Part shown: positions 8,859 through 59,893 of the stretch, one piece after another
How positions within the stretch are numbered: position 1 is the first letter of the stretch
Layout: every line of letters starts with the position of its first letter
Assembly (NCBI GenBank): GCA_963930775.1
Contig: OZ005703.1
Coordinates: 7,316,001 to 7,380,000 of the forward strand
Direction: 5' to 3'
Length of the DNA: 64,000 nt
Source: Cliona cf. orientalis
Taxonomy: Eukaryota > Porifera > Demospongiae > Clionaida > Clionaidae
Notes under the pieces: model-generated
The model's input: the letters and a program-made list of their open reading frames with translations, nothing else
Told to the model about the DNA's origin: nothing
Databases searched by the model: none
Translations under genes and position numbers: made by a program

Positions 8859-11800
8859 ATGGTGGTATCAGGCTGTCTTCGATATTGGATATTCACATCA
8901 GTGCTCTTGTTGTCTTCCTGGAGACAATGCAGTAAGTTCAGTTAACTATCAGCGACCCTCGATTCATTTATCTCTTTCTAGATGGCACCACTACGCCTTT
9001 CTCTACATCACCAGCTAATATCTCAGTTGACAGAGGAGGAAATGTGAGCTTTAGCTGCACTTATCCAAATGTGGGTGTAAGCATTTCTTGGAATGGTCCT
9101 GGAGTTGAGGAAGGTGATGGTACATGTACTATGTCAATGGAAACTAATACTAAAACCTGTACTCTAATGATCACAAATGTCAGTAATTCACGTACTGGAA
9201 AGTATTTCTGCACTGCTCGATTTAATGATATGACGGTTAATTCCACAGTGAGTACTCTGTCAGTTAACAGTTACTGTAAGTATTAATAATTATGAAGCCG
9301 TTGTTCATAATCTGAAGGTTATGATATTAATTATTAATTCCCATACAGATATGACAGTTCGGTTCAAATCAGATGTTATTATAGTGCATGAAAATCAGCC
9401 TATTGAGATTCCTATAAATGTGACAGTGTTCGGACCTCCAGTTCGCAATCCCTATCTGGTTTTGCACTATGGTGAAGCTGCAAGCTCCATGAACAAGCTT
9501 ATTAATAAAACAAATGGAACTCAAATTTTGCAAATTTCTACCATTCAACTTACTTGCATGACACCACCAGTCCTGGTGAGAGCAACCACTAATGACCCTC
9601 TGGTGGAGTTGCAAGGAAGTAATATAGTTTCCATCCACATAGGTATATAAAAATCCTATCAATTTGCACACTCAGTATAAAATGATGTAACATTTTCAGT
9701 GCCAACTATTGGATTCAATAAGTCTAATTCTTACTCTGTTGTGGAGGGTGACACTGTGACAATATGTGTAACTGTGATGTGTGGACAACTTCTGCAGAAT
9801 GAAACTGTGATATTGTCAATCATAAATAACACCGCAAGAGGTCATTGCATGAATAACTATAATTATTATACTGCATGCAGTGGATGAAAATAATTATTGA
9901 AGAGTTGAGAGCCAGAGTGGACCGGCTAACCCCAAATAGAATGCGGGAGATTGTCTAAAAAGCTCAAAAATGGACTAAAAATCAAACACTCTACTCTACC
10001 AAATCACTCAAATTTTCAAAAATTCGATGTTTCTGTTGCTCATGAAGTAACATGTTTCAAGATTAGGGGGGCTACTAAACATTTGTGTGTTAGGCCACTC
10101 TGGTTCTGGGCCCTTCAATTCATTGGGCTTCTTTTTCTTTGTATACAGCTGGGATTGATTTTATTGCTCCTGAGAAAATGAGCATCACTCTGACTACTTC
10201 ATCCGAATCATACTGTGTTGTGATTATGACTATATTTGATGATAACCAAACAAGCATGGACAAACAGTTCCAGATACTGATGCAGCCATCAGCAAATACT
10301 GAACCTGACTCACCTGTGGTCTACATGCCAGATACAATAAATATCACCATTACTAACTGTACGTCCACAATATTAAGCTTAAAAGATGGATTATACTAAT
10401 TATGCTGGGGTTTTAACTTATTTTATTATAGTTCCTCTGCCAACAATAATGCCATTAGAGAAGAAAGTGACTACTGGGGGAACCACTGGATTCCAAATAA
10501 TCACCAGCTTTCTATTCAGAAATTTTCAGTGGCTGTATAATAACATGAATATTTCAGAAATAGAAATAAAATATTCTGGTGTAAAAACGAACAATCTGAC
10601 TGTTATGAACATAGCAAAAAGCGATGCAGGCTACTATAGTTGCAATGTGACGACTGAGTTTGGCCTTACTGTTACTTCACAGCAAGCTAGACTGCAAGTC
10701 TGTAAGTATGAAAATTGCTGTCATTAATCTTATAGTGTCCATGACAAGCTTATCCAAATAGTTGCAGTACCAATGATCACTGCTGGACCGGTGAGCATCA
10801 CAGTGAACAGAAGTGAAGCAGGTTTAGTTTCCTTCAGTGTAACCATAGATGAAGCAATGGAGGAGGAATTTACATACCAGTGGCTGAGAAATGGCTCAGA
10901 TCTGATGGAGATGCCTGGAAAATTTGAAGGAGTGAACACTTCAGAGTTGATGATCACAGATCCACGGAATGAAGATGAAGGCAGTTACCAGTGTACGATA
11001 GTCAATGGAGCTGGAGATAGTGTGACATCTGACAAAGCTTTCCTCTCTGTTGGTAAGTTGTCATTCAAAGAATAACCCATTTTCTATTATTATACCTTAA
11101 TTGGTGTGTAGTTGATCTACCTGCTATGCCAGTGATCACTAATGTATCGGCAAACTCCACTTCCATCACAATTAACTGGAACCAAAATTTGTCCTGTGAC
11201 GTTTTTTGGTATGAACTGCAATACAATTTCACTATTGAAGAATGTTACAGTGAAAACAACACCTGGTCCAATGAATGGATTGATATGATCAATGGCTCCC
11301 TTACTAGCTACACTCTTACAAATAGTTCTGAAACTCTCGTGGAAGAAGACAGTGCATACAGTATCTTCCTCACAGCTGTGAACTCAGATGGGAGAAGTGA
11401 AGCCAGCACAACTCAGATTTCAACATTGGGAGCTGGTATGTTGAGTAAGTTAGTACAGTACTGATTGCAATCAATACTTCTTTTCTAGTACCCACTGGAG
11501 CTCCTATCAACCTCAATGGAATGGTAGTAAATGACAGGGAAATTACCATTCAGTGGGAACCAGTGGAGTGTAGTCAACGTAATGGAGAAATTATCGGCTA
11601 TAATGTGACCTACTATCCTGCTGGCGAAAACTCAATGCCAAAATCTGTGGTGACACATGCCTCAGATAGTACTTTCACTGCCAAGGATCTTGTATTTAAT
11701 ACAATGTATGTGTTTGAGGTACAAGCTATCAACAGCTATGGAACTGGACCACCAGCTAATGCTAATGTGCGAACATCAATTCTTCAAGGTAGGCATGCTA

Positions 11801-17800: not shown

Positions 17801-20330
17801 CACTAATTGACGTAGATAATACTTCTAACTTCAGCTGTCAAGCTTCAGTTCATAGTGATAGCGCATTCATTCAGCAAAGTGACGTTGGAGAAGGCTCTAT
17901 TCATATTCCAGTCCAGCAGAGAAGTTGGTTAATCATCAGTTAATTTGATTAATTTTATACTTGTTTCTTAATCTACAGCACCTTCAGAACCAAAAATCGT
18001 GATTGAAAATATTACATCAACCGGAATTGATCTAAGATGGTCTCAGGCAGCACATGATTTCATCAAAGGATTCACCATCACAGCAACTTACGTGGCACCC
18101 TGCAATAATTTCAGCAATATACCTCACAAATCTTCACATTCAGCACTCACTAGACAAGCCAACATAGCAGGCTTGCAAGAATTCAGCAGCTACTCTATTG
18201 TGATCACAGCATTTAATGATGCTGGGAACAACTCTTCTCCAATAAACATCACCACAAATTCTTCTGGTAAGTGAAATCTATGACATCTACCATGACCAAT
18301 ATTTTAATTTTTCAATATACAGAGCCAACTGGTTCTCCCAACAGTATTAGGAATATCTCAGTAAATCTTATGTCTATTGCAATCTCGTGGAGTCCTATCA
18401 GCTGTATTGAGCAGAATAGCATCATTCATGGATACATTGTCTACTATCAGAAGGGATTGCAAGAGGGAACTAGAAATAATATCAGTACGATGATGACAAA
18501 CGCTACCATAAATAATTTGGATCCCCGCACTAATTATGAATTTGAAGTTCAGGGCATTAATGAGAATGGCCAGAAAGGTCCGTCAGAGAAACTGAATGTC
18601 ACTACCAGTGCTCCAACTGGTAAGCCAGTAATCGACATTAATTTTTCCGCCAAAATTTAGCAGCTAACTTTCTATTGCATACATCAGCTATCGGGCTTCT
18701 TTTTCATGATAGTCACCTCGAAAATAAGAGTGTTGTCTCCCTGGATGAAATTGGTGAGGGAGCTGATGCTCTACTTTGCCTAACTAACAGTCTCAGTTGC
18801 TGTGAGGAGCATGGTGATGGGACGACTAGCGGTATGTGGTACTTCCCTGACTCAAGTCCAGTGCCTCTGGAGAGTCAAGCATCTGGACATGATATGTACA
18901 TCAGTAGAGGGCCAGGTGTGGTGCGTCTCCATCGTAGAGGAGGTTCCATGATGCCAGTGGGAATTTTTCACTGTGAGATTCCAGATGGAGGAGGAATGAA
19001 TCAAAGCATATTTATTGGAGTTTATCCAGACGTCCAGGGGGAAGGTATTAAATTATCTCATTAAGCTGTCCTTCTCCAGCTATCTCTTGATAAACCCACT
19101 AATTGACGTAGATGATATTTCTGACTTTAGCTGTCAAGCTTCAATTCATAGTGATATATATAGTGCATTCATTGAGCACAGTAATGTTGGAGAAAGCTCT
19201 TAGACTATTCATATTCCTGTACATGTCCAGTAGAGAAGTCAGTTAAACTTATTGTAATCTACAGCCCGTCAGAATCAGTAATTGTTACACCACAACAGTA
19301 AAATAATTATGGACTTAATTTTGCTTATAAGCTTTTGAATCTGGTACAGAAACTACCATGGCTACTGCTCCTGCAACTACCACTAGTACTACTACTACTG
19401 ATGAACTTGTGACTGCCATGACTACTATGAGCGCCACCAATGCTAGTGATGACAACAGTATTAATGATGGTAAGTGCCAAGCTGATAGCTGGTTAATCAG
19501 TGATAGGTACTTTAATACAGATCTGTTATTACAACTAAGACTATTTGAGGTTCAAAACTGTTTGGAATGGGTTGTAAGTTACATACTATTAATATAACTT
19601 TATGGTGATTCTTTTCCCCATGACTATTGTGAATAGAATGTGAATACTAACATCAAGGTGAATGATATTTCAACAGCAATTGTGTCCAATATTAATCAGC
19701 GTTGTCAGTGTGGATTATCTCGTGAAAATATCACAAATGGTGTGTTCCGTTGTTTTCCAGCCTCTCCCCAGGCTGTGACTTTTCGTGCCATTCTTCATGG
19801 AGGCACAAAAGCCTCTAGCTCTGAGCTTTCTTCATACATTGAGCAATGGATTGGGAACGATATCACAATTACCATTCAAAGTATACTAATTAATGTAGAT
19901 AGTAGCTGTATGATTGCTATTTCTTCATTTGATGATGGAGAGTGTCAGATTGACTTAGAAAAACACACAAATAACAGCTCATCAGCTATTATTGGTGGAA
20001 CTGTTGCTGGTTTACTGCTCTTATTGATTCTTTCTACTGCTGTGGTCGTAGCATTGCTGATAATGTTACGGCGGAGAAAGAAACACCATAGCAGGTATTG
20101 ATTTTTCAAACCATCATAGATACCGGGTACATGTTATTTTGCATAATAATAAATATTTTTTATTGGATTCCAGGGATTCCAACACTTGCATGCAGGCAAC
20201 TGAGGCAAATTTGACTCACAGTCCAGCCCATGACTATGAAGCAATTGATAAGTATGCAAAAGAATACAAAGATATTGTAGAGATGGATTTGACCAAATGT
20301 CCGGCATACGAGCCCATAAAACAAACTTAA
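8859..20330 (+). CDS. Gene B1: giant Ig/Calx-beta/FN3/FPNG receptor with ITAM tail
   Basis: Exons: 8859-8931, 8982-9275, 9349-9642, 9700-9840, 10149-10358, 10432-10701, 10762-11052, 11112-11435, 11489-11788, 11842-12174, 12239-12523, 12586-12834, 12892-13182, 13245-13586, 13652-13957, 14015-14359, 14426-14701, 14761-15060, 15113-15739, 15808-16116, 16178-16519, 16573-16851, 16907-17161, 17212-17517, 17573-17923, 17979-18266, 18323-18619, 18688-19044, 19350-19469, 19521-19573, 19637-20094, 20174-20330. They sum to 3041 codons with no internal stop. Order: signal peptide, Ig, unknown beta domain, Calx-beta, Ig-Ig, FN3-FN3-FPNG, eight Ig, Ig-FN3, FN3, FPNG, four Ig, FN3-FN3-FPNG, Thr-rich stalk, terminal Cys domain, one membrane span, 60-odd-residue tail. 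It is a type I receptor at the plasma membrane, rich in N-glycosylation sequons. Exon 7 could also begin six bases later at 10768. Confidence 0.88.
9349..9642 (+). other. Unrecognised beta-rich domain exon (B1 exon 3)
   Basis: 98 codons between the first Ig and the Calx-beta domain. Alternating hydrophobic residues, a LVLHYGEA stretch and a single cysteine (LTCM) suggest a beta sandwich, but I cannot assign a family. The homologues in B2 (28740-29048) and B3 (46459-46752) have the same layout. C1 lacks it. Confidence 0.6.
9700..10358 (+). other. Calx-beta domain split over two exons (B1 exons 4-5)
   Basis: The first half reads IGF-x-SYSVVEGDTVTICV...NETV-x-LSI and the second AGIDFIAPE...V-x-IMTIFDD...F-x-ILMQPS...ITITN. 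This is the Calx-beta layout (F-x-Y-x-V-x-EG ... DY-x-P ... I-x-DD ... F-x-V-x-L). The intron sits before the AG-DF turn, as in C1 (61697-62104). The first donor is the unusual AG|GTCATT (GTCACT in B2 and B3). Confidence 0.85.
9893..10122. mobile_element. Probable short inverted-repeat insertion in B1 intron 4
   Basis: The B1 intron (9841-10148) is about 230 bp longer than in B2 and B3. The extra sequence is bounded by inverted copies of AGAGCCAGAGTGG (9908-9920) and CCACTCTGGTTCT (10095-10107), with weaker similarity extending outwards. It carries no protein. The target duplication is not clear. Confidence 0.5.
13652..15739 (+). other. A-like Ig block inside B1 (exons 15-19)
   Basis: These five exons read like A-gene Ig exons: exon 15 matches the LHFSPLKLSDAGEYTC type, exon 16 the IxPGSSPNVTC...DVPLDI type, and exon 19 begins APSPASVMI and fuses an Ig to an FN3 domain in one 627-nt exon. 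They interrupt the FN3-FN3-FPNG-Ig periodicity, which suggests an ancestral insertion of A-type modules. In B2 most of this block is deleted. Confidence 0.6.
19064..19290 (+). pseudogene. Relic of a VPTPSI-type Ig exon inside B1 intron 28
   Basis: The segment matches the 3' part of exon 25 (SFSS-x-L-x-NPLIDVDD...SFSCQAS), its following intron and the start of exon 26, but contains stops and indels. It sits exactly where the B1/B2 structure leaves the B3 structure, between the third FPNG module and the stalk. It looks like a scar of the recombination that gave B1/B2 a different 3' end. Confidence 0.65.
19350..20330 (+). other. B1 stalk, terminal domain, membrane span and ITAM tail
   Basis: A 40-codon Thr/Ser-rich stalk exon (mucin-like) is followed by a linker exon, the A-type Cys domain (CQCGLS...FRCFP...DSSC...GEC), and a strongly hydrophobic span (about AIIGGTVAGLLLLLILST onward) closed by RRRKKHH. 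The last exon encodes DYEAI (Tyr at 20235-20237), then six residues, then YKDI (Tyr at 20265-20267), and further on YEPI (Tyr at 20307-20309). YxxI-x6-YxxI with an acidic residue before the first Tyr meets the ITAM consensus. When phosphorylated by Src-family kinases, ITAMs recruit tandem-SH2 Syk-type kinases. No charged residue lies in the span, so an adaptor is not implied. Confidence 0.8.
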
Positions 20331-20929
20331 TCGTTAAAAATGTACAACTAAAATGAAAATTATAGTTACTATACGTACATGTGTGAAGATGTAGATATTT
20401 AGCATGATTCAATGAATTTTTCACTTTTATTCCATTGATACACTTGGTTCTTGTTAGCCTAACAATCATGTATGCTAATCCCACATATTATAATAATATT
20501 ATTGTATGCTAAGTTTAGCTTGCGATAAACTTTTACAGATGATGAATCTGATATTTTTTCTGATACTAGCTACTACTTTACAAGGGGTTGGATAAGCTTC
20601 TGTAGCTACCAGAATCTTGGCAGGTTGACACTGAATGATGTGTACATTGACTCAGAGATGGTAAGAAGATGAAACAGAAATATTATAATACTACCATGAT
20701 AATGTACAGAGAAATAGTGCGCACACACATATACACACACAGAGGATAGAAAGAGAGGGTGCAGGTGGGGGGGCCTCGAGGCTGGCCCCCGTCGAAGTCC
20801 GGGGTAGTCTTGTCTGACTGACAAGAAATTTATATATTTGAGGCTTGATATTAAGTCAAAATGATTCAGGCTCTAGTGATATGTATAAATCTGGAATATT
20901 TCTTGCTCTTATGACAGCAAAAAGACCTG
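20331..20929. other. Spacer between B1 and A2
   Basis: Non-coding AT-rich DNA apart from the decayed RNF11-like exon listed separately. No canonical AATAAA is obvious just after the B1 stop. Confidence 0.5.
20761..20823 (-). pseudogene. Decayed copy of the RNF11-like first exon
   Basis: The minus strand matches 3247-3300 closely over the EFDGGQPRGPPPP region, but the CC-run length differs, the PY motif and donor are lost, and the start half is deleted. It shows that the duplication unit began left of 3247 and that the copied exon lost constraint. Confidence 0.7.
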
Positions 20930-21074
20930 GCGCGGCGTTTGTCGCATCCAGCCACGCCTTCAAGGGAAATCACGTGCATGATTCGGAAGTGGAAGTGGTC
21001 ATCGATGCGCATGCGCACGGCGCACAAATTCCTATGCCTCCAGAGTACCTTACCCTAGCCCTTGTAGCCAAGCC
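20930..21074 (+). promoter_or_regulatory. A2 promoter with NRF-1-type palindrome
   Basis: TGCGCATGCGCA at 21006-21017, 58 bp before the ATG, with the same CCAGCCACGCCT block upstream as in A1. Confidence 0.7.
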
Positions 21075-24000
21075 ATGGCATGGTTAAACGGTGTTTTGCT
21101 GATCGGATTGGTGACGGTAAGCTCGATAGTCTCTTCTCATGGTCAAGGTATGCACAATAAGGTGCCAGCACCGCTACAGTTTTATTACTGTCACTATAAT
21201 TAATTTTTGTGTAGTGAGCAGCAGTGTGTTTCTGAGCCTCAATGGACACTTCATTGCTAATAATAGTTATGTGGATGTTGATGATATTGGTGAAGATGAC
21301 GATGCTCTGCTCTGTCATACTGATAAGCCTGACTGTTGCAATCCATTCTTAGTCTATGGAATACGAGCAGGAGAGTGGTACTACCCCAATGGAAGTAGAG
21401 TGGGAATTCAGGGAGGGTATCAAGATGAATTTTATAGAAACAGGAGAGCACAAGTTGTACGACTCAATCGTCGACAAGGCACATTTACAGCAAGAGGACT
21501 TTTCCGATGTGAAGTACCAGATGCCAGTGGCATCATACAGACTGTTTTCGTAAATATTGGTATGTACACAGTAATACAGGTTATATAGATGGCCACTAGT
21601 TATTACATCCCGAGTCCCAATCAACAAAAAAAATTCGGCCAACCTACGTATGATGAAATTATGATGAAACCTATGATATAATTGTTGTGAAGACTGTTTC
21701 AAAATGTTTAGCTCGAATGAAAGGTTGTTGGGACCCAGAATTCGATCCTAGCGTAGAAGAGATGCATGGACTATCGATGATATACGGCGCCGCGATTCTC
21801 TCGGTTCGCTCTTTGGCGAGTTCGCACTATTTCCTGAGCATGCATGCATGCACTCTGAGGTGCACCGGTGGAGGTCACGTCGAGCCCGTCCGGGTCACGT
21901 CAACTCTTAACGTACAACCGGCCAGGCTCAAGCCGCGCGCCCCAATATACGCGTATACGGAGCATGCGCAGTTGTCCGAGGTCGATGATGGCGGCGTAAA
22001 GTAGGCGCAGCGAATACTTTTCATGAGGGACGAGGGATGTAGTCTAAGTTTTTTTTTACATTATTACATCCCCAGTAGCAATTTACCTTTCTGTGCTCAT
22101 GAGATAATTATGGTGTATTAATCTATGAGGTAATTTATGAGAAAATTCAGGGCCTCAATGGAGCCTTTCAGAGACTTGAAAATCGGTAAGTATGTAGAGT
22201 ATCTGACGCCTGTATATAGCGAATAGATTAAAAGCTGAGAGCTACGTTCTCCGAAAAGTACCGCTGGCCGAACTTCATGCATTCACTTAGCTGACGTAAT
22301 CCTGTGGATAAATAAATTTAGCCTTGTGCTAGCAAGCACGCTACGTGCACGCCATGGGCGCTGTCGAATTCATCTCCTATCATCGAAACTTGTCACTATC
22401 GTCTCAGACTCCATCTCCGTGATTGAGGCGCATGTGACTTATAGATGATGCACGCACTGCATTGACGACCATTACCACATCATGCACCATTATAACTATG
22501 CAGCTACTGGGGATGTGGTCAAGTTTTTCATTGTATTAATCATGCATCAAACATTAATTTTAGTGAATATTAATATTACCATCGATATCACTCGTTCTGG
22601 ACCTATAATTATTGTTAAAAGTCGACCTGAGAGGAATTTTTCACTTGTGTGTTCGGCTGATGTTTCTGCTAATGCTGAACCACCACCAATTCTTGAGTGG
22701 TTCTATGGTCCAGAGAACGCCTCTCCTCCCTCTGATGTGGTAGTGTCTAACGTGACAAATAATGGCAATAACTACACAAGCGCCCTGCAGTTCTCCCCAC
22801 TGCGTGAAAATCATACCGGTATATATACTTGCCGAGTTGGATATGCAGCAGCAAGCATAGTAATCCTTACTGGTGGTAAGGAAATTACAATTATGTTAAT
22901 ATTCACCATGAAACTCCAGCTCAGTTTCTCTGCATGTATTATTCTAGATCCTACCATCAATATCAGCAATGTTGGTACAAACACAGCTGGTGGAAAATAT
23001 AGTCTAATATGTATGGTGACTGGAGGAATTGACAAATTGATAGGGAACTATAATTGGACTAAAGATAATGGCATTGCTCAGACTGTAGTTGGTAATTCCA
23101 GAACTCTATTTTTCTCCCCTCTCAAATTATCTGATGCTGGACAGTACCTATGTCAAGTCACTATAGGCTCTCAAATATATGATGCCATTAAATACATCAA
23201 TATTGAAAGTAGGTTAACCATGTATAATTAATTTTTATCCAAATTATTCCTCATAATCATTCTTTTATAGTTCCGGCTCCAATGAGTACAAGCATCACTA
23301 GTAATCCAGCCAGTCCTATCCGTCCTATTGGATCTGCTGTGACTCTGATTTGCACTGTTGTATTGAGTCCAGCAGTGGATGTTCCAGTGACTGTTATTAT
23401 TCATTTGAATGATCCAGTTGGTAGCCCACTGATCACCACTACTCCATCGGTGTCTGGGTCCAATTACACAAGCACAGCTATTGTTAATTCATTTGGAAGA
23501 GAGGACTCAGGATTATATACGTGTAGGGTTAGTATTAGCTCTACTCTCCCATTCATCAGAAACAGTAATCCAAAATCTGTGGCCTCAAAAGTAACTATTG
23601 GTGAGTTTTGGTGCCCTTGCATCATTAAATGGGTATAATAGTTGTTATTATGAGAACAGCGCACAGTTTCTAAATACTGTGACATGTTGCCATGAAAATT
23701 ATCTCGGAATGGTTAAATACATGCACTCATGTTCATCTTGCATTTAGGTGTCTACCTCTCACTGAAAGGGAATGTGTACCCCAACAATAGTGTCATCTTT
23801 ATCAATGAGATTGGAGAAACTGATGATAATTCAAACCCTACTCAAAACGATGCACTCCAGTGTATCACCGACAAGACCCCATGTTGTAGGTTCTTCCCTA
23901 ATACAGCTGGGGAGTGGTATTTTCCCAATGGAACACTGGTCCCGGAAGAGGGTGCTGATTCCATACCATTTTACAGAAATAGAGGATTTGATGATGGAAC

Positions 24001-26971
24001 TGTCAATTTGAATCGTATTAGCACACTATCCACTGTTTCTGTTCCGACTGGATTATTTTGCTGTGTGTTACCTGATATGGACGGTACTAGCCAAAGGCTT
24101 TGTGCTGATATCAACCATGGTGAGTAAAGGTATGAAAATTATAGTGTACCTATTATCTAGAACATTTCATGATGCAATAACATTTGTATAGTCATTGTGA
24201 CCGTTACTACTGCTGGTAACAATACTGCTGGTGAGATTTATAGTCTAGAGTGCTCTATTAATGGAGGACACTCAGCACAATTCCAATGGTTCAATGAGTC
24301 AGAGACAGATGTCACTGGACAAGAGTCAACAGTTATCACCTCCTCCCCTTCCAGTAGCATTTTGGAGTTTTCTCCACTGCACCAATCACATGGAGGGACT
24401 TATACCTGCTCTGCTAATGTCAGTGATACTGTAGTTTCAAAATCTGTAGAACTATCAATAAAAGGTATAATGCTTGTTGTCTGGTTTATTCAGGTGATTT
24501 CATTATTACAATGTCTTTGCGATAGCTCCTACAGTCACAGTACAGATTACTGGTGGAGAGATTATTCCAAACATAGGACGTGAATATACCCTCACATGCA
24601 GCATCTTTGGAGCTGAAAATTTGAATGCCATGCTAGCCTATGAGTGGAGGAATAAGGGCCAATTACTTTCAAATTCCAGTGTTTTGCAATTGCCTTCCCT
24701 GAAGCTATCTGATGCTCGAAGATACACATGTCAAGTGTCAGTGGCATCAAGCTACCTTCATAACAGTATTACTGTGACAGAATCTCACAATCTAGTGATC
24801 AAAAGTAAGCATTGTCGGAATCATATTATTATTGAATTGCAACTATTTTTACACATATTATATAATATTATATATAACACACAGTTCCAGATCCTTTGTC
24901 CATACGTGCTTCCAATAATAAAGCCAGTCCTATCCGTCCCATTGGATCTGACGTCATTCTAACTTGTACCGTGGAGCTGAGTACATTGGTGAATGTTCCA
25001 GTCATTGTGACCACAGTGTGGACTGGACCAGCTGGATTTAGGAATGCCATTAGCACTTCACAGCCTGCAGTGGGAAGCAATAACTCCTATACTAGTGCAG
25101 TCACTGTCAGATCATTCGGGAGAATCCATTCTGGACAGTACACATGTGCAGCTCAAGTGAATAGTTCACAGAATTCAGAGTTTTATGTCACAAATAATGC
25201 AAGTGTATTTGGAGCAGTTCAAATCACTGTTGGTGAGATATTATAGTACAATGGCATAATATTAATAATCTTCAACTTTGTAATAATATTATAGGTGTCT
25301 ATCTTACTCTGAATGGGAGAGTGTATGCTAACAATAGTATCATCACCAAAGCTGAGATAGCGGAGACAGCAAATGGGCTCCAGTGTGTCACAGACAAGAT
25401 GCCATGTTGTCAGACTGGATCTAGAGTGGGAGGGTGGTATTTTCCCAATGGATCAGTAATTCTAGAAGGGAGAGACCACACTACCTTCTTTGTGAGCAGA
25501 GGTGACAATGGAACAGTCAACCTGAATCACGTTGATAGCAGTAATGTCTCTTCTCCATCTGGAAGGTTCTGCTGTGAAGTACCAGATGTTAATGGCCTCG
25601 GTCAAACCCAGTGTGCTCTCTTAAGTAAATTGAAGAAATACTAAAATAATTAATGATGTATGATGTATTTATAATTATTTTTTTCACATTGCAGTTCCTA
25701 CTTTGTCGGTCAATGTTACCAGTAAAGGAAGTATTATTACTGGAGGACAGGATTTTAGCCTGAAATGTACAATCTCTGGAGTAGAAGCTCTCAATCCTAT
25801 CTTAACCTACCAATGGACAAAGAGCAATAGCACTGGACGAATGCAAGTTGGATCTAACACAAGCACTCTCTCCTTCTCCTCTCTCAGGTTGTCTGACGCT
25901 GGACAGTACTCTTGCCAAGTCATAGTTAGTTCTCGGTATCTTCGTGATGCTCTTAATGTGACCAGTGTACCATTTGACATTTATCTTCAAGGTAAAATTA
26001 TTAATGATCACTTCTTAATAACACACTTTTAAAAATTAATGCAGTTCCTGAGCCTATTGTGAGGCTTGTTTCTGACACCCCCAATCCCATTCTCTCTGGT
26101 TCCTCTCCCACTCTGACCTGTGCTGTGGAGTTGAGTCCAGCAGTGGATGTTCCAGTGACTGTGAACACAGAATGGACTGGACCAGATGGATCAAATCTGA
26201 CATCTGGTGCTCCTCCTGTGATGAGGTCATTCACCCACTACACCAGCAAAGCAAAGCTAAATTATGTCGAGTCAGCAGACTCTGGGAACTACACATGTAC
26301 TGTGAGTATTGGAGGAAAGATCAGGGCATCAGTGTCAAAAGTAGTAGTCATGGGTAAGCTGTAATTTTTTATCATTAATGTTTAATTTACATGTATGTGT
26401 ATTATTTGGCTCTCAGGAGATGGAATGTTTCAGATAAGACTGAAAAATGCAGATATTTGTCAACCACGGTACAAGAATGTACATGTAAGCGATTTTTGTT
26501 CTAGTAGAGAATCATGATCATAATGTTACTACAGCTAATGCATGGATATTTTAATAGCCCGATATGGAAGCTGAACTGTACAAGTACCACATAGAGGAGG
26601 CTCTCACTGAAGCAATTGAGAGTCACTGTGAGTGCCATCTTCCCAGAGCCAATCTGCTCAAGGCATCGTTCAGCTGTGGCAGCTCCCCCAACCTCACAAC
26701 CTACCGAAACACTCTCATTGGAACACACAACTTCAACGCCACCCAGCTCATTGGATTCATTCAGGACTGGGTGACCTCTGAACCCCAGATCAACATCAAA
26801 GACTACTCAGTGTGGCTTGACAGCAGCTGCCCTGTTGCCATAGCATCACTGAAGGAGCCTGAGTGTGGGGAAGTGAGGGATTGCCCCTGCGCTAACGACC
26901 CAAATGTTATCAAATGCATGGAGTTCCTTGGAGATGAGAGTTTTTTTGGCTGCATTAACTCGTGCATCTAG
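21075..26971 (+). CDS. Gene A2: intact secreted Ig/FPNG-module protein
   Basis: Exons: 21075-21147, 21215-21559, 22564-22875, 22948-23208, 23271-23600, 23748-24119, 24192-24464, 24526-24804, 24885-25232, 25295-25624, 25695-25991, 26045-26353, 26417-26484, 26558-26971. They sum to 1337 codons with no stop or frameshift. Order: signal peptide, FPNG, Ig-Ig-Ig, FPNG, Ig-Ig-Ig, FPNG, Ig-Ig, linker, terminal Cys domain ending CINSCI. No membrane span or GPI-like tail is seen, so secretion is expected. It is the reference copy of the A family, since A1 and A3 are damaged. From exon 9 onward it is nearly identical to A3, introns included, while the first three exons are much more diverged. Confidence 0.88.
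21604..22041. mobile_element. Inverted-repeat-bounded insertion in A2 intron 2
   Basis: A2 intron 2 is about 1 kb against 62 bp in A1. TACATCCCGAGTCCC (left) and GGGACGAGGGATGTA (right) are 13/15 inverted repeats. The interior is GC-rich compared with its surroundings and includes GAGCATGCGCAG followed by ATGATGGCGGCG, which resembles a captured housekeeping promoter. About 500 further bp to 22563 are also extra and unassigned. No transposase is seen. Confidence 0.5.
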
Positions 26972-28273: not shown

Positions 28274-31200
28274 ATGGTGGTATCAGGCTGTCTTCGTTAT
28301 TGGATAGTCACATCAGTGCTCTTGTTGTCTTCCTGGAGAAAATGCAGTAAATGTTAACTATTACGCTAACTCGATTTATAAAATTTTATCTCTTTCTAGG
28401 TGGCACCACTATGACTTTCACCACACAGCCCGTCAATAAAACAGTTGATAGAGGAGGAGACACAAGCTTTAGCTGTACTTATTCACTAATGAATGTAAAC
28501 ATTACTTGGAATGGTCCTGGATTCGAGGCTGGTAGCACCACTCAGAGTACCGTAAACATGGATGCTAACACTAGTACTCTAACTATCACAAACGTAAATA
28601 GTTCACATGCTGGAGGATACTTCTGCACTGCTCATAGTGAAGGGATGGACATTAATTCCACAGTGGCGTATTTGAAAATTAATTGTAAGTACATAATCAA
28701 CTATTATGAAGAGCTAAAAGCATTGATACCTTCACTCAGATGTAGCCGTTGAGCTCACTTCAGATGTTGCTGATACTATAGTGCATGATAACCAGCCTGC
28801 AATGCATATGATTACTGTGCAAGTGACACTAATTGGATCTCTTTCTGGCAACACCTTACTAGTTTTCAACTACGGTGATGGTGGATTCTCTGTCAATAGG
28901 TCAATTAATAGAATATCTGGAAGTCAACCTCTGCGAATTCCTACTACTGGTCAACTTACTTGCATGACATCAGAAATCCAGGTGACAGTGACTACTGATG
29001 ATCCTCTGGTGGAGTTGCAGGGAAATCGTATGTTTTCCATCCACATAGGTAAAAATAACTATCAATTTGTATACTCAATTAAAATGGCATGAAATTTTCA
29101 GTACCAACTATTGGATTTGAGAAGTCTTCTTACTCTGTTGTGGAGGGTGACACTGTGACAATATGTGTAACTGTGATGTGTGGGCGTCTTCTGCGAAATG
29201 AAACTGTGATGTTATCAATCATAAACACCACAAGAGGTCACTGTATGAATATTGTTATACTACATGCTGTGGATGAAAATTTATTGTGTTTCTATTTCTT
29301 TGTATACAGCTGGGATAGACTTTATTGCTCCTGAGCAAATGAACATCACTCTGACTACTTCATCCGAATCAGACTGTGTTATGATTATGACTGTATTTGA
29401 TGATTACCAAACAAGCATGGACAAACAGTTCCAGATACTGATGCAGCCATCAGCAAGTACTGAACCTGACTCACCCATCTACACACCTAATATAACAAAT
29501 ATCACCATTACTAACCGTATGTCCACAATATTATTATTAAGCTTAAAAATGGATTATTATGCTGGAGTTTTACTCTTTTTATAGTTCCTCTTCCAACAAT
29601 AATACCATCAGAGAAGAATGTGAGCATTGGGAATACCATTGGATTCCAAATAAATGTCAGCTTTCCAGTTATGAAATTTCAGTGGCTACATAATAACACG
29701 AGTATTGTTGGGGAAGAAAGATATTCTGGTGTCACAACAAATAATCTGACTGTTATGAACATATCTAAAGATGATGCAGGCAGCTATAGTTGCAATGTGA
29801 CGAGTGAGTTCGGCCTTACTGTTACTTCGCAGCAAGCTCGACTACGAGTCTGTAAGTATTAGAAAATTCCTATCATTATCTTATAGTATCCATGATGAGC
29901 TTATTCAAATAGTTGCAATACCAATAATCACTGCTGGACCGGTGAACATCACAGTGAACAGATCTAGAAATGAAGCGGATTTAGTTTTCTTCAATATTAC
30001 TAACGAAGCCTTGGATGAGGAATTTACATACCAGTGGCTGAGAAATGGTTCAGATCTGATGGAGATACCTGGAAGGTTTGAAGGAGTGAACACTTCAGTG
30101 TTGACAATCATAGATGCACGGAATGAAGATGAAGGCAGTTACCAGTGTGTGATAGTCAATGGAGCTGGAGATAGTGTGATATCCAATAAAGCTTTCCTCT
30201 CTGTTGGTAAGCTATTATAGAGTAATAATATCGATTATTATTTTACTTGTCTTAATAATAATAATTATTGCAGTTGATGTACCTGCTATGCCCAATATAA
30301 TTACTAATGTAACGGCTAGCTCTACTTCTATCACAATCACCTGGAATCAAAACACCACTAGTGATGTTGTTTGGTATGAACTGCGATACAATTTCATTAT
30401 CAGAGGGTGTGAAATTTGGTCTGACAATTATACTATCGATATGATTAATGGCTCTCGCAGAAATTACACACTAGAAGACAGCACTGCAACTCCAGTGGAG
30501 GAAAACAGTGCTTATACTATATTTCTCTCTGCTATTAATTTCGATGGAGCAATTGACACTTGCACAATTAAATTATTGACTCAAGGATCTAGTGAGTTCA
30601 ATTTGTTGTATTAACAAATTTTAGTCACGGATGTCCTGTATATATTTCTAGCTCCAAGTGGAGCACCACAGAATTTCAGTAAATTTTTTTCCAATGATGC
30701 AACTATCACTATTGAGTGGGAACCAGTCGAATGCAGGCATCGTAATGGAGAGATTACTGGTTATAATGTGACCTATTATCATGGAACAGAAATGAATAAG
30801 ATGACACTGATGCTGCCAGAATTGGAGCATACATTCACTGTCACTGGACTTATATTCAATACAACGTATACCTTTGAGGTAGCGGCTCTCAGTCAGCAGT
30901 ATGGGGCTGGTCCATCAGCTACTGCTATGGTAACTACATCACCTGTTCAAGGTATAGATTTATGATCACCAAACTCTACTGGCTGTTAGCTAATTTCACT
31001 TATTATTAGGTATAGGGCTTGAATTTGGTGGTCGATCCTATCAAAATCACAGCATTGTGGATCTCAACATGGCTGATGAGAATATTCTTACATGTCACAC
31101 TAACAAGACGAACTGCTGCAAACTGGCCAGTGGTGGGATAGGGGAATGGCTATTCCCAAATGGAACACAGGTTAGAACAAATGGCACTGGTGATGACTTT

Positions 31201-38704: not shown

Positions 38705-38710
38705 AATAAA
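38705..38710 (+). terminator. B2 polyadenylation signal
   Basis: AATAAA 54 bp after the stop codon. Confidence 0.55.
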
Positions 38711-38799
38711 TGATATAGATATATTTTGCATCATTCAATGGATTTTTCAATGGATTATAATGGATTATGATAGCAGAAAAGACAGTGGATCTGGTGATC

Positions 38800-38949
38800 G
38801 TGACCGTGCCGTTTGTACGTTCGTTGCGCATCCAGCCACGCCTCCAGGAAAATCATGTGTACGGAGGTGGAAGTGGCCATCGATGCGCATGCGCGTGACG
38901 CATGGGACTCCCACGCCTCGAATTCTACAACATTCTGCCTATCCTAGCC
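38800..38949 (+). promoter_or_regulatory. A3 promoter with NRF-1-type palindrome
   Basis: TGCGCATGCGCG at 38884-38895, 55 bp before the ATG, with the CCAGCCACGCCT block upstream. The B2-A3 spacer is only 298 bp and has lost the RNF11-like relic found before A2. Confidence 0.65.
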
Positions 38950-41900
38950 ATGGCATGGTTGAACAGTGTTTTGGTGATCGGATTGGTGATCGTTAGCTCG
39001 ACAACCTCATCTCATGGTCAAGGTATGCACCTTATGGTGACAGCACTTTTTATAGTATTAATTTTTTTGTGCAGAAGGTGTGTTTCTGAGTCTCAAAGGA
39101 CAATTCATTGCTAACGATAGTTATGTGGATGTCGATGATATTGGTAGTGGTGGTGATGCTTTACTCTGTCATACTAATAAAACTGACTGCTGTGGTGAAC
39201 TTCCCAACCGAGCTGGGGAGTGGTATCCTGGTTACTCTGAAGATACAGTGGGAACTCAGAGAACATCTAACTATGAATTTTACAGAGATAGAGGACCACA
39301 AGTTGTACGTCTCAATCATCGAAAAGGATTTTCTCCAGCAAGAGGACGTTTTCGATGTGAAGTTCCAGATGCCAATTATAACATGCAGACTAGATACATA
39401 AATATTGGTATGTAGACTACAACGCCGGTAGCTAGTTTAATATCTATCTGTATGCATGATTGTATTAATGTTTCACATATTTAGTGGATATTGGATCAGT
39501 TACCATCTCTGAGAATGATCTTTCACTTGTGTGCTCGGCTAACATTTATCCACCGGCTCTTTATGGATCACTGCCAGTTTTTGAGGTCCAAACAATTCCT
39601 CTCTTCCCTCTGATGTGGTGTCTAATGGGACAAAATTAGATATTAATAGCAATAATTATACAAATACCCTGCAGTTCACCTCACTGCGTCATATCGGCAT
39701 TTACACTTGCAGAATTGGATATTCAGCAGCAAGCATAATAATCCTTGATAGCGGTAAGAAAGTGACAATATCAATTTTCGTGATACTCTAGCTTTTCTGT
39801 TTATTAGATCCAATCGTTGATATCACGAGTGATGGTACACAAACAGCTGGTGGAAATTATAGTCTCATGTGTATGGTGATTGGTGTAAGGAATGATAATT
39901 TGATGTATAATTGGACTAAAGATAATGGTACTGCTCAGTCTGTAGTTAGTACTTCCAGCACCCTGTTCTTCTCCCCTCTCAAGCTGTCTGATGCTGGACA
40001 GTACTTGTGTAAAGTGATGATAGGCTCTCAAATGTATGGTGCCATGGAATATATCAATATTGAAAGTATGTCAATTATGTTAGAATTTAAACCTTATCCC
40101 ATAATGTTTTTTTTTTTTAGTTCCGGCTCCAATGCTTATAAGTGTCACTAGTAATCCAGCCAGTCCTATCCGTCCTATTGGATCTGCTGTGACTCTGATT
40201 TGCACCGTTGTGTTGAGTCCAGCAGTGGATGTCCCAGTGACTATTAATATTCATTTGAGTGATCCAGATGAGAGTCCACTGACTACCACTACTCCATCGG
40301 TGTCTGGGTCCACCTACACAAGCACAGCTATGGTTAATTCATTTGGAAGAGAGGATTCTGGATTATATATGTGTAGGGCTAGTATTAGCTCTAACTTTCC
40401 ATTCATCAGAGACAGCAAATCAATATCTGTGGCCTCAAAAGTGACTATAGGTGAGTTTTGCTGCCCTTGCATACAGATAATGAGCATAATATTAATTTTA
40501 TGATATTATGAGAACGGTGGTTTCCAAATACTGTGATAATATATTGCCATGAAATTATCTTGGAATGCCATAATAATGTTATAGGCCATTAGCTACATGT
40601 GTTCATCTTGTATTTAGGTGTCTACCTCTCACTGAAAGGGAATATCTACCCCAATAACAGTGTTATCTTTGTCAACGAGATTGGAGAAAGTGACAATAAT
40701 TCAAACCCGGCCCTATTCAAAATGATGCACTCCAGTGCATCACTGACAAGAGTCCATGTTGCAAATTCTTCCCTAATACAGCTGGGGAGTGGTATTTTCC
40801 CAATGGAACACTGGTCCCGGAAGAGGGTGCTGATTCCATACTATTTTACAGAAACAGAGGGTTCAATGATGGAACCGTCAATCTGAATCACATTCGCACA
40901 CTATCCACTGTTTCTGTTCCAACTGGATTGTTTTGCTGTGTGTTACCTGATATGGATGGTATTAGTCAAAGGCTTTGTGCTGATATTGATCATGGTGAGT
41001 AAAGGATACGAAAATTATATAGTGCACGTACCTATTATCTAGAATGTAATATTTTTATAGTCGTCATAACCATCGCTACTTCTGGTAACAATACTGGTGG
41101 TGAGACTTACAGACTAGAGTGCTCTGTCAGCGGAGGACACTCAGCGCAATTCCAATGGTTCAATGAGTCAGAGACAGATGTCACCGGACAAGAGTCAACA
41201 GTTATCACCTCCTCCCCTTCCAGCAGTGTTTTAGAAATTTCTCAACTACACCAATCACACGGAGGGGTTTATACCTGCTCTGCTAATGTCAGTGGCACTG
41301 TAGTTTCAAAATCTGTAGAATTATCAGTAAAAGGTAATAATGCTTGTTGTCTGGTTTATTCAGGTCATTTCATTATTACAATGTCTTTGCGACAGCTCCT
41401 ACAGTCACAGTACAGATAACTGGTGGAGAAATTACTCCAAACATAGGACATGAATATACCCTCACATGCAGCATCTTTGGAGCTGAAAATTTGAATGCCA
41501 CGCTAGGCTATGAGTGGAGGAATAAGAGCCAGTTATTTTCAAATTCCAGCGTTTTGCAATTGCCTTCTCTGAAGCTATCTGATGCTGGAAGATACACATG
41601 TCAAGTGTCAGTGGCATCAAGCTACCTTCATAACAGTATTACTGCAACAGAATCTCACAATCTAGTGATTAAAAGTACGTAATTATCAGTCGATATTAGT
41701 GTAGACATTACAACTTACACATAGTATTACATAACACACAGTTCCAGATCCCTTGTCTGTGCATATTTCCTACAATAAAGTCAGTCCTATCCGTCCCATT
41801 AGATCCGACGTCATTCTGACTTGTACCGTGGGGCTGAGTACATTGGTGAACATTCCGGTCATTGTTACTACAGTATGGACTGGACCAGCTGGGTTTACGA

Positions 41901-43825
41901 ATACCAATAGGACTTCACAGCCTGTAATGGGAAGCAATACCTCCTATACTAGTGCAGTCACTGTCAGATCGTTTGGGAGAATCCATTCTGGACAGTACAC
42001 ATGTGCAGCTCAAGTGAATAGTTCACAGAATTCAGAGTTTTATGTCACGAATAATGCAAGTGTATATGGAGCAGTTCAAATCACTGTTGGTGAGATTTAT
42101 ACAATGGCATAATATCTTCAACTTTGTAATACTATATTATAGGTGTCTATCTTACTCTGAATGGGAGAGTGTATGCTAACAATAGTGTCATCACCAAAGC
42201 TGAGATAGCAGAGACAGCAAATGGGCTCAAGTGTGTCACAGACAACATGCCATGTTGTCAGACTGGGCCTAGAATGGGAGGGTGGTATTTTCCCAACGGA
42301 TCAGTAATTCCAGAAGAGGGAAACCACACTACCTTTTTTGTGAGCAGAGGTGATAATGGAACAGTCAACCTGAACCACAATGATAGCAGTAATGTCTCTT
42401 CTCCATCTGGAAGGTTCTGCTGTGAAGTACCAGATGTTAATGGCCTTGATCAAACCGAGTGTGCTCTCTTAAGTAAATTGAAGAAATACTAAAATAATTA
42501 ATGATGTATGATGTATTTATTATTATTTTTTTCACATTGCAGTTCCTAATTTGTCGGTCAATGTTACCAGTAAAGGAAGTATTATTACTGGAGGACAGGC
42601 TTTTAGCCTGAAATGTACAATCTCTGGGGTAGAAGCTCTCAATCCTATCTTAACCTACCAATGGACAAAGAGCAATAGCACTGGACGAATGCAAGTTGGA
42701 TCTAACACAAGCACTCTCTCCTTTTCCTCTCTCAGGTTGTCTGACGCTGGACGGTACTCCTGCCAAGTCATAGTTAGTTCTCGGTATCTTCGTGATGCTC
42801 TTAATGTGACCAGTGTACCATTTGACATTCATCTTCAAGGTAAAATTAATGATCACTTCTTAATAACACACTTTTAAAAATTAATGCAGTTCCTGAGCCT
42901 ATTGTGAGGCTTGTTTCTGACACCCCCAATCCCATTCTCTCTGGTTCCTCTCCCACTCTGACCTGTGCTGTGGAGTTGAGTCCAGCAGTGGATGTTCCAG
43001 TGACTGTGAACACAGAATGGACTGGACCAGATGGATCAAATCTGACATCTGGTGCTCCTCCTGTGATGAGGTCATTCACCCACTATACCAGCAAAGCAAA
43101 GCTAAATTATGTCGAGTCAGCAGACTCTGGGAACTACACATGTACTGTGAGTATTGGAGGAAAGATCAGGGCATCAGTGTCAAAAGTAGTAGTCATGGGT
43201 AAGCTGTAATTTTTTATCATTAACGTTTAACTTATAATATTATTATATATGTGTATTATTTGGCTCTCAGGAGATGGAATGTTTCAGATAAGACTGAAAA
43301 ATGCAGATATTTGTCAACCACGGTACAAGAATGTACATGTAAGCGATTTTTGTTCTAGTAGAGAATCATGATCATAATGTTATTATAGCTAATGCATGGA
43401 TATTTTAATAGCCCGATATGGAAGCTGAACTGTACAAGTATAACATAGAGGAGGCTCTCACCGAAGCAATTGAGAGTCGCTGTGAGTGCCATCTTCCCAG
43501 AGCCAACCTTCTCAAGGCATCGTTCAGCTGTGGCAGCTCCCCCAACCTCACAACCTACCGAAACACTCTCATTGGAACATACAACTTCAATGCCACCCAG
43601 CTCATTGGATTCATTCAGGACTGGGTGACCTCTGAACCCCAGATCAACATCAAAGACTACTCAGTGTGGCTTGACAGCAGCTGCCCCATTGCCATAGCAT
43701 CACTGAAGGAGCCTGAGTGTGGGGAAGTGAGGCATTGCCCCTGCGCTAACGACCCAAATGTTATCAAATGCATGGAGTTCCTTGGAGATGAGAGTTTTTT
43801 TGGCTGCATTAACTCATGTATCTAG
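38950..43825 (+). pseudogene. Gene A3: A-family gene with two frameshifted exons
   Basis: Exons by homology: 38950-39022, 39075-39407, 39485-39753, 39808-40065, 40121-40450, 40618-40994, 41061-41333, 41396-41674, 41742-42089, 42143-42472, 42543-42839, 42890-43198, 43271-43338, 43412-43825. Exon 3 has lost 10 bp including the Ig tryptophan (stop at 39637-39639) and exon 6 has gained 5 bp near 40710. Exon 2 has also lost the FPNG core (it reads GEWYPGY). Read literally the product is about 186 residues. All splice sites are intact and both broken exons are phase 1-1, so skipping both would leave 1104 codons. Pseudogene and splice-rescued gene are both possible. The 3' half is almost identical to A2. 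Confidence 0.72.
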
Positions 43826-44089: not shown

Positions 44090-44680
44090 ACAGTTGTTAT
44101 ACGCAATGGGATATGTATCAATCGAAAGGCTAAATGGAACGGAAGACTATCAACTCTGGACAGTAAGTGTAAACAGTTAAATTAGTATTCTAAGCCTGAG
44201 GTACCATTTATATTTTTAGTCTATGAAAGCAACTGTCCACAGAAATAACATTGAGAATGCCCTCGTGCATGCAATTAAGAGCCTATGTGATATATATGAA
44301 GATGCAGTTTTCTAAAGGAGAATCTCGTGCAAGTACGCTTCTCTCAGCCAGCACAACAACTTATCAAAGATCTCCCATTGGAATACACAATTTTAACATC
44401 ACCCAGCTCGTTAGATTCATTCAGGACTGGGTCAGCCAGTCCCTTGTCCTCCTCTCCAGCTAGGTTGCTATTAATAATACTGTATTGAGCTGAGTCTCAG
44501 AATAATGAATAGGAGAGGGGGAGAGGGGGGGAGGGGGAGTGGATCCAGCTGGCCAGAATAGGACTGAGTGACCTCTGACCGGATAAAAATCAAAATTAAT
44601 GGTGGTACACAATGAGAGTGGATAGCAGCTGCCCAGTGACCATAGCGCATCTTTGGAAGAGAAGGAGTGTCATGCTGGAT
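44090..44680 (+). pseudogene. Decayed duplicate of the A-type last two exons (third copy)
   Basis: 44095-44160 resembles the linker exon and 44221-44460 the first part of the terminal domain exon (NIENAL, FIQDWV). After a purine-rich insertion, more of the domain is readable near 44620-44665 (a serine, two cysteines, then the ECH region). Frame breaks throughout. Confidence 0.65.
44517..44537 (+). repeat. G-rich tract with quadruplex potential
   Basis: Runs of five, seven and five G separated by AGA or A, inside the terminal-exon relic. The 7-G run can be split, giving four GGG runs. No function is claimed. Confidence 0.6.
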
Positions 44681-45044
44681 AATACTTAATATGATTGCTT
44701 GAACATATTATACAACTATACAGTATAGCTACATACTATAAACAGTTATGTGTGCCTGATCACAATATTCATGGTAGTTGTGTATTATTGATTCCCTAAT
44801 AATAATAATATTTTTAGCTAAGAAGAATTGGTGTGCAAACATGATTCTTGTTGATGCTATTATCAAGAATAATTATGCTTACATGAATGATACAGTACAA
44901 TCAGTGTGTAAACATGATTCTTGTTGATGTTATGATTATGCATATTAATCAAATATTATGCTTACAGTGTATGATACAGTGCATTTGTTTTGCATGCCCT
45001 TCAGTAATAATTATATATGCATGGCATATGCTCACGTAATATTC

Positions 45045-45284
45045 TATAGCTGTATCATAGAAGGCTCTATACTTTGTTCATGCTGGGAGATTATCAAATT
45101 GAAGTTGTTTTTGAACCACCTGTTATGTCAACATTTCCTTTCCTACCCAATGTGGGCACAAAAACAACATAATCCATGCTAGATCATCTATAAGATGATG
45201 ATTAAACTCAGCGTGAGTCCACATAACAGGTTAGCTAAACAGAGCTAGTCGTTCTAAAGAAATAATATAGCTATCTAGCCAGCC
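45045..45284 (+). promoter_or_regulatory. B3 upstream region conserved with B1 and B2
   Basis: Same block as at 8620-8858, leading to a GCCATGG start. A partial second copy lies at about 45760-45873. Confidence 0.5.

Positions 45285-59893
<14,609 letters not shown>

What the first reader, a model, noticed from the sequence alone, without database searches (positions are those of the whole stretch)
8859..59893. Paired ITAM-bearing and phosphatase receptors with one shared ectodomain in a single cluster
B1 and B2 (ITAM tails) and B3 (RPTP tail) align exon for exon over 28 ectodomain exons. Receptors likely to see similar ligands are therefore wired to opposite tyrosine-phosphorylation outputs and sit in one tandem array with secreted relatives. 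This is the logic of vertebrate paired activating/inhibitory receptors and recalls the Alr cluster of Hydractinia, here with a catalytic phosphatase as the counterpart. I do not know of a described system of this form.
Basis: partly seen in the sequence, partly recalled or inferred. Interest (0 to 1): 0.93.

Follow-up and report, generated by a model that had tools for sequence, protein, structure and literature searches.

The report
Receptor pairs with opposite signalling tails
In a simple animal, probably a sponge, a cluster of very long cell-surface receptor genes comes in matched sets that share the same outside but end inside the cell either in a short activating-type tyrosine tail or in a phosphatase enzyme, a layout like our own immune "go/stop" receptor pairs but built differently.

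Summary
B1 and B3 share a signal-peptide exon plus 27 phase-1 Ig/FN3 exons; B2 matches 24 of the 27 and lacks two and a half. B1/B2 end in a SEA-like exon, TM and an ITAM-like tail; B3 ends in TM and a LAR-type tandem phosphatase with intact D1 catalytic motifs. Reading 100 kb on each side, I find ten membrane receptors at C15:7.316-7.437 Mb in four ectodomain families, and all four contain both tails: B1,B2/B3; F/C1,C2; E/D; H/G (G damaged). One ~900-bp ITAM-like cassette (79-84% DNA identity, introns included) follows three different ectodomains. On a tree of 49 Ig-like domains the ITAM label needs 13 changes for 13 rows. B1-B3 ectodomains are exon-block mosaics. So tails and ectodomains are exchanged as cassettes. 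Best reading: a paired-receptor system whose counterpart to the ITAM-like receptor is a catalytic phosphatase. Opposite signalling, shared ligand, co-expression, polymorphism and allorecognition are inferred or untested. The tail is only ITAM-like: strict core in B1 and B2, second motif YxxV elsewhere, no acidic -3. Free tail shuffling without selection for pairing is the main rival.

The parts
3872..7959 (+). A1: Ig/V-like-domain gene ending in a SEA-like exon, no TM-like stretch found 3' (secreted-type relative)
8859..8931 (+). B1 signal-peptide exon
8982..19044 (+). B1: 27 shared ectodomain exons (Ig, FN3, V-like), all phase 1-1
19063..19246 (+). dead relic of B1 exon 24 to start of exon 25 just after the shared block (scar)
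19350..19469 (+). B1 Thr-rich exon
19677..20094 (+). B1 SEA-like + transmembrane exon
20174..20332 (+). B1 ITAM-like tail exon (YEAI-x6-YKDI, then YEPI) to stop
21044..26968 (+). A2: secreted-type relative
28274..37410 (+). B2: signal peptide and 25 ectodomain exons (counterparts of B1 exons 16-17 and half of 15 missing near 33401)
37434..37619 (+). same exon 24 relic in B2
38002..38651 (+). B2 SEA-like + TM exon and ITAM-like tail exon (YEAI-x6-YEDI, then YEPM)
38948..43822 (+). A3: secreted-type relative (two weak hydrophobic frames 3' of it)
45285..56080 (+). B3: signal peptide and 27 shared ectodomain exons
56151..56887 (+). B3-specific Ig exon and Ig+TM exon
57167..58620 (+). B3 juxtamembrane exon and PTP domain D1 ([15 protein letters not shown] intact)
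58689..59893 (+). B3 PTP domain D2 (WPE, CNDGVGR), stop
60831..64000 (+). 5' part of C1, the next PTP-tailed receptor (continues in L009-L010); its ectodomain partner is F (ITAM-like, L012-L013)

Best explanation
This is a paired-receptor complex with exchangeable tail cassettes. Shown: one array holds four families of Ig/FN3 receptors, each existing both with a SEA-like/TM/ITAM-like tail and with a TM/LAR-type phosphatase tail; tails and ectodomains have separate histories; in B1-B3 ectodomain exon blocks are exchanged between oppositely tailed copies. Inferred: the members of a set bind the same or overlapping ligand at a cell contact. Src-type kinases phosphorylate the two YxxI/V tyrosines, which recruit tandem-SH2 proteins and start a response, while the partner, with an ectodomain of the same kind and roughly similar length, is not size-excluded from the contact and removes phosphate there directly. 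The ratio or affinity difference of the two sets the threshold. Secreted A-type proteins would be ligands, decoys or linkers. The ITAM-like members arise by unequal exchange in phase-1 introns that puts the ~900-bp cassette behind ectodomains of phosphatase receptors (direction supported by a remnant in F, not proven). The use is most likely recognition of self, kin or microbes.
For: Four of four ectodomain families carry both tails: B1,B2/B3; F/C1,C2 (C1-F 7,474 bp at 84.0%); E/D (1,216 bp at 89.7%); H/G (1,604 bp at 92.1%; first V-like exon identical in protein). The ITAM-like cassette is shared by B1, B2, E, F at 79-84% over about 900 bp with introns, and its tree joins E with F (83) and B1 with B2 plus two database rows (85), against the ectodomain groupings (SH-aLRT). 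On the V-like domain tree of 49 rows, ITAM needs 13 changes for 13 rows (shuffled mean 11.5), at least 9 forced by strongly supported branches; the A label needs 4 (0 of 500 shuffles as low). Mosaic: 2,334 informative sites in B1/B2/B3 fall into 1,030 runs against a shuffled mean of 1,491, 0 of 2,000 as low; B1-B3 per-exon dS ranges from 0.10 to 1.56 in blocks. Function kept: long open frames; D1 motifs intact in B3, C1, C2, D; the three catalytic exons compared between C1 and C2 have dN 0.00-0.01 at dS 0.12-0.30 while their ectodomain exons reach dN 0.56; both tail tyrosines and their +3 hydrophobic residues kept in 7 of 7 cassette tails read, two of them (P0026, P0037) from other sequence records. 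F keeps a 42-bp in-frame remnant of a C1 FN3 exon. An SHP-like gene (2 SH2 + PTP hits) and SH2-kinase genes are in the genome (L030 Src-like by my reading); Syk is reported from sponge in PMC2820527 (passage).
Against: Opposite output is read from motifs and domains only. The tail fits the full ITAM definition in 0 of 7 (no acidic -3) and the strict Yxx(L/I) core in 2 of 7; the more distant tails S2 and S3 lack the second motif. Tail constraint is weak: pooled pN 0.12, pS 0.19 in B1, B2, E, F, and dN exceeds dS between B1 and B2 (0.082, 0.066). All-mixed families are expected in 29% of free tail assignments. Neighbouring PTP genes P1-P3 and SEA-TM genes S1-S3 (C15:7.217-7.293 Mb) are not paired with each other. 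G has its two D1 motifs in different frames and no D2 found, so that set may be half dead. F lacks several C1 ectodomain exons, so lengths are only roughly matched. A Syk orthologue was not located here. RPTPs can also activate Src kinases (recalled).
Confidence: 0.55

Rival explanations
1. Tail shuffling without pairing: in a recombining tandem array, tails are swapped by unequal crossing-over, so mixed families arise by themselves; the receptors with different tails do separate jobs and are not balanced against each other.
For: All-mixed families in 72 of 252 free assignments; relics and remnants at junctions show recombination at work; mosaicism of B1-B3.
Against: Shuffling must be frequent enough to decouple tail and ectodomain fully (13 changes for 13 rows), yet the neighbouring groups P1-P3 and S1-S3 stayed apart; both tails occur with long ectodomains in two sets and with short ones in two sets.
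Confidence: 0.25
2. The YxxI/V tail is a sorting, endocytic or PI3K-type tail (YxxPhi; YEPM is YxxM) rather than an activation motif; the genes are adhesion or uptake receptors, and the phosphatase versions are LAR-like adhesion receptors.
Against: Two tyrosines at exact x6 spacing in 7 of 7 cassette tails, including two from other records.
Confidence: 0.15
3. Cooperation, not opposition: as CD45 does for Lck, the phosphatase partner keeps Src-type kinases active and helps the ITAM-like partner to fire when both are gathered by one ligand.
For: B3 has a LAR-type tandem PTP with an active-looking D1; enzymes of this class can activate Src kinases (recalled).
Against: Nothing in the sequence decides it; by the kinetic-segregation view (recalled) a phosphatase that stays in the contact lowers ITAM phosphorylation.
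Confidence: 0.12
4. Assembly chimeras or mostly dead genes.
For: G carries a frame change between its D1 motifs; B2 has a deletion; near-identical G/H could confuse an assembler.
Against: B1 3006 aa and B2 2757 aa open, B3 open to the TM; alignments run through introns; to judge by equal contig length (904,192), the B1, E, F and H cassettes also lie on one contig of the protein database (not necessarily an independent assembly, and B2 was not among the rows read).
Confidence: 0.03

Closest known systems
Vertebrate paired receptors, in particular CEACAM1/CEACAM3 (also KIR, SIRP, Siglec pairs)
   Same: Very similar ectodomains with different signalling tails, ectodomain similarity kept by gene conversion and recombination, secreted relatives in the family (PMC2832619 and PMC3533184, passages); a relic of the other tail type in an activating member (KIR2DS2, PMC3533184 passage) resembles the remnant in F.
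   Different: The inhibitory-type partner here carries a tandem phosphatase itself, not an ITIM that recruits SHP; ectodomains of up to about 27 Ig/FN3 exons; another phylum; no functional data.
Hydractinia Alr genes (allorecognition complex)
   Same: Clustered Ig-superfamily membrane receptors of an early animal, with ITAM/ITIM-type motifs reported (PMC12065747 passages; cluster described in PMC11067881 passages).
   Different: No phosphatase-tailed members are mentioned in the passages seen; polymorphism and function are known there and unknown here; sequence relation not tested.
Botryllus fester co-receptors (FcoR)
   Same: V-type Ig receptors with Yxx(I/L/V), hemITAM or ITIM tails in a recognition locus, with plastic coupling of ectodomain and tail (PMC12065747 passages).
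   Different: Tail switching there is between short motifs, also by splicing; here it is between a short tail and a phosphatase, fixed in the genome.
LAR-type (type IIA) receptor tyrosine phosphatases
   Same: Ig + FN3 ectodomain, one TM, tandem PTP domains (1lar, E 4.5e-132).
   Different: Far longer ectodomain with an extra V-like domain type, tandemly expanded, shared with non-phosphatase receptors.

Membership tests
Paired activating/inhibitory receptors | Closely similar ectodomains on separate genes with different cytoplasmic tails | tested here: met
   four families of four
Paired activating/inhibitory receptors | Conversion/recombination between the two kinds | tested here: met
   for B1-B3; the other three families were only aligned
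Paired activating/inhibitory receptors | Inhibitory member is a non-catalytic receptor with an ITIM | tested here: not met
   B3 ends in a tandem PTP; its juxtamembrane part was not scanned for ITIMs
Paired activating/inhibitory receptors | Opposite signals, shared ligand, same cell | not testable with these tools
   needs cell experiments
ITAM receptors | Yxx(L/I)x6-8Yxx(L/I) core | tested here: inconclusive
   met by B1 and B2; E, F, H, P0026, P0037 have V at the second +3 (2 of 7 strict, 7 of 7 with L/I/V); S2 and S3 fail both
ITAM receptors | Acidic residue at -3 of the first tyrosine (definition in PMC2832619) | tested here: not met
   0 of 7
ITAM receptors | Binding of tandem-SH2 kinase Syk/ZAP-70 | not testable with these tools
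   Syk not located in this genome; two candidate loci read are RasGAP-like and Src-like by my reading
LAR-type RPTP | Tandem PTP domains, D1 with WPD and HCxAGxGR | tested here: met
LAR-type RPTP | Ig plus FN3 ectodomain | tested here: met
   (last six domains of the B3 ectodomain scanned)
Alr-type allorecognition receptors | Sequence relation to Alr1/Alr2 | not tested
   no comparison made
Alr-type allorecognition receptors | High allelic polymorphism linked to fusion/rejection | not testable with these tools
   one unnamed assembly only
Immunoglobulin superfamily (V-like repeat domain) | Ig fold | tested here: met

The most novel reading that the evidence does not exclude
An early-branching animal evolved, independently of vertebrates, a recognition complex in which capture of one ITAM-like tail cassette repeatedly turned phosphatase receptors into activating-type receptors, giving at least four matched sets whose brake is the enzyme itself rather than an ITIM that recruits one, with exon-block exchange keeping each set's ectodomains alike.
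Probability: 0.42. Interest if true: 0.93.

Novelty: new variant of a known kind. Interest (0 to 1): 0.86.

Why it matters
Paired receptors are one way in which vertebrate immune cells set thresholds, and candidate allorecognition receptors of cnidarians and ascidians carry ITAM/ITIM-type motifs (PMC12065747 passages). A sponge-grade animal with matched sets, one member of which carries the phosphatase itself, would push the go/stop design to the base of animals, show another way of building the brake, and show how a receptor changes sign: by tail-cassette capture. It gives a defined 120-kb candidate locus for the old question of how sponges tell self from non-self or friend from foe.

Tried and rejected
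Chance or repeat artefact: rejected by long co-linear alignments with introns and open frames. The first exon model with strict splice scores missed many exons and was replaced; a few boundaries were then set by homology (B1 exons 24 and 27, B3 exons 4-6); I had set the end of B3 exon 4 six bases short, in frame, and one search shows the proper donor at 47240; the start of B1 exon 27 was likewise set three bases late. The B3 D1 exons that the program missed were read by eye. Pairing between P1-P3 and S1-S3 upstream: looked for, not found. Syk: SH2 hits were searched and two loci read; neither is Syk by my reading; open. SEA-like module: structure prediction failed (pLDDT 40.5) and Pfam gave no SEA hit, so SEA-like is my reading of the sequence and weak. 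Organism: no call names it; demosponge is recalled from similar domains in sponge proteins. A whole-genome count of the ectodomain was not obtained (tool busy). Positive selection: dN/dS over matched exons is 0.34-0.55 in the pairs across tails, so no gene-wide excess of dN. Kinase-tailed members: none of the listed kinase matches lies in C15:7.2-7.48 Mb, but only 119 of 2,511 candidates were scored, so they are not excluded.

Dropped rows: ORFs under 60 aa, hits above E 1e-6 and domain hits under 85 aa were left out, and S1 gave none; 49 rows remain, several on long branches that the program flagged. In one search only co-linear same-strand pieces were kept and gene pairs with 600 or fewer aligned bases were not printed. 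In one search matches of 120 bits or less were not printed. In one search exons under 120 bases (outside B1-B3), matches of 35 codons or fewer and matches under 40% identity were left out. In one search one codon of F was left out to fit the SEA-like exons. In one search I read 20 of the 41 proteins; two of those 20 carry the tail. In one search I used 12 of the 41, two of four A-type rows, and left S1 out.

Full report
WHERE. The window is C15:7316001-7380000 of a 217-Mb, 149-contig genome without a name. Compact phase-1 Ig/FN3 exons and the domain types suggest a demosponge; that is recalled, no call names the organism. I read a further 100 kb on each side.

GENE MODELS. An exon-chain program with splice weights trained on the window, checked by eye and by translation, gives B1 as 31 exons and 3006 aa, B2 as 29 exons and 2757 aa, and B3 as 30 exons and 2995 aa up to its TM, followed by the phosphatase exons. 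B1 and B3 share a signal-peptide exon and 27 ectodomain exons, all phase 1-1. B2 has 25 of these; a deletion took the counterparts of B1 exons 16-17 and half of 15. After the shared block B1 and B2 carry a dead piece of exon 24 to 25, a Thr-rich exon, a SEA-like exon with TM, and one tail exon. B3 has instead two Ig exons, the second with TM, and a tandem phosphatase whose nearest solved relatives are LAR (PTPRF) and PTPRS, with D1 motifs intact and a D2 of the WPE type. The repeated cysteine-rich domain that Pfam does not match in the part scanned is predicted to be an Ig fold, ranked first with NCAM Ig1 and tied with other Ig domains (AlphaFold2 on 17 window sequences).

FOUR SETS, NOT ONE. 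Downstream, on both strands, are seven more membrane receptors: C1 and C2 (+, phosphatase), D (-, phosphatase), E and F (-, ITAM-like), G (-, phosphatase, its D1 motifs in different frames, D2 not found) and H (-, ITAM-like), plus an A-type gene I. DNA comparison of the ten receptor genes sorts their ectodomains into B1,B2/B3, C1,C2/F, D/E and G/H. Every family has both tails. The tails cross these lines: the ITAM-like cassette aligns at 79-84% over about 900 bp among B1, B2, E and F; and a phosphatase exon of G is 98% like that of D in protein (dS 0.07) while the V-like exons of the two have dS about 1.5, whereas G and H agree at 92.1% over 1,604 bp of ectodomain. In a tree of 49 V-like domains the ITAM label takes 13 changes for 13 rows, at least 9 forced by branches of 95 or more; the A label is clustered (4 changes, 0 of 500 shuffles as low). 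The cassette tree pairs E with F and puts B1 and B2 together with two database rows (supports 83-86, no bootstrap). As a control, the neighbouring phosphatase genes P1-P3 and SEA-TM genes S1-S3 do not have each other as closest ectodomain partners.

EXCHANGE BETWEEN COPIES. Synonymous divergence between B1 and B3 is 0.10-0.27 in exons 1-6, 0.93-1.56 in exons 7-10, 0.21-0.44 in 11-13, 0.45-1.4 in 14-18, 0.41-0.99 in 19-22 and 0.12-0.29 in exons 23-27. The closest pair changes along the gene: B1-B3, then B2-B3, then B1-B2, then B2-B3, then B1-B2, with mixed stretches between (2,334 informative sites, 1,030 runs against a shuffled mean of 1,491, 0 of 2,000 as low; uneven divergence between blocks adds to this clustering, but the change of the closest pair needs recombination). 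F keeps a 42-bp in-frame end of a C1 FN3 exon that in C1 lies between the shared block and the phosphatase (local score 46 against a best of 27.5 in 200 shuffles), which suggests that F descends from a phosphatase-type gene.

THE TAILS. B1 ...HDYEAIDKYAKEYKDIVEMDLTKCPAYEPIKQT; B2, E, F and H are alike. The two-tyrosine core at x6 spacing with I/L and I/V at +3 is in 7 of 7 cassette tails read, including P0026 and P0037 from other records. Strict ITAM core: 2 of 7; acidic -3: 0 of 7. Shuffled B1 and B2 tails give the strict core in 0.3% of trials. The more distant S2 and S3 tails have a single YxxL. In the genome, clear matches to the tail exon were found at five places, all in this cluster; one weak match elsewhere (C15:6892339, residues 97-178, E 0.002) reaches into the tail and a few others just past the TM. 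The three C1-C2 catalytic exons compared show dN 0.00-0.01 at dS 0.12-0.30, so the enzyme is under strong constraint; the tail exon is not (pooled pN 0.12, pS 0.19).

HOW IT MAY WORK. Established parts: ITAM-type tyrosines are phosphorylated by Src kinases and read by tandem-SH2 proteins; receptor phosphatases reverse this (recalled; PMC12065747 passages list the same parts in Botryllus). The genome has many places with SH2 and kinase hits side by side, three loci with SH2 hits beside PTP hits (C8:9936138-9938107 with two SH2; C4:7445030-7460998 and C4:7505653-7513694), and Syk is stated to occur in sponge (PMC2820527 passage), though I did not find it here. I infer that two receptors with the same outside meet at one contact and that the phosphatase member, roughly equal in size and so not squeezed out, limits the other. 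The sign of the phosphatase effect and the ligand are unknown.

AGAINST. Free shuffling would leave all four families mixed in 72 of 252 assignments, so the pattern shows modular tail exchange firmly and selection for pairing only weakly. No expression, binding or polymorphism data exist here.

LITERATURE. Seen as passages: PMC12065747, PMC2832619, PMC3533184, PMC2820527, PMC11067881. Seen only as listings: the rest, whose lists were capped. None of the titles or abstract openings listed describes ITAM-like and phosphatase receptors with one ectodomain; Huene et al. 2022 and Rodriguez-Valbuena et al. 2022, 2024 were not read.

Mended against the calls: the statement on TMs of the A genes, the G-D comparison, the tie in the fold ranking, the weak tail match outside the cluster, the length match of F and C1, and lists of dropped rows.

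Noticed in passing
45874-45945: A second, degenerate copy of the B signal-peptide exon, with a stop, lies in the first intron of B3.
   Followed up: partly
8285-8590: A second SEA-like reading frame after the A1 SEA-like exon.
   Followed up: no
L013 (C15:7424600-7429400, - strand): G, the phosphatase partner of H, has its two D1 motifs in different frames and no D2 was found, although its ectodomain is nearly identical to that of H.
   Followed up: partly
C15:7216001-7256500 and 7279500-7296000 (L021-L028): Three further phosphatase receptors (P1-P3) and three SEA-TM genes with single-YxxL or long tails (S1-S3), not paired with each other.
   Followed up: partly
C4:7445030-7460998, C4:7505653-7513694, C8:9936138-9938107: SH2 hits beside PTP hits: apparently three SHP-like genes.
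   Followed up: no
genome-wide, e.g. C15:7.94-8.06 Mb and C4:1.92-2.00 Mb: 186 PTP-domain matches counted exon by exon, many in tandem clusters elsewhere.
   Followed up: no
proteins P0006 and P0008 (contig of 702,123 bases), P0013 and P0020 (contig of 5,356 bases): Other sequence records carry, to judge by equal contig length, two SEA-TM cassettes each, 72-90% like that of B1: other haplotypes or species with a similar array.
   Followed up: partly
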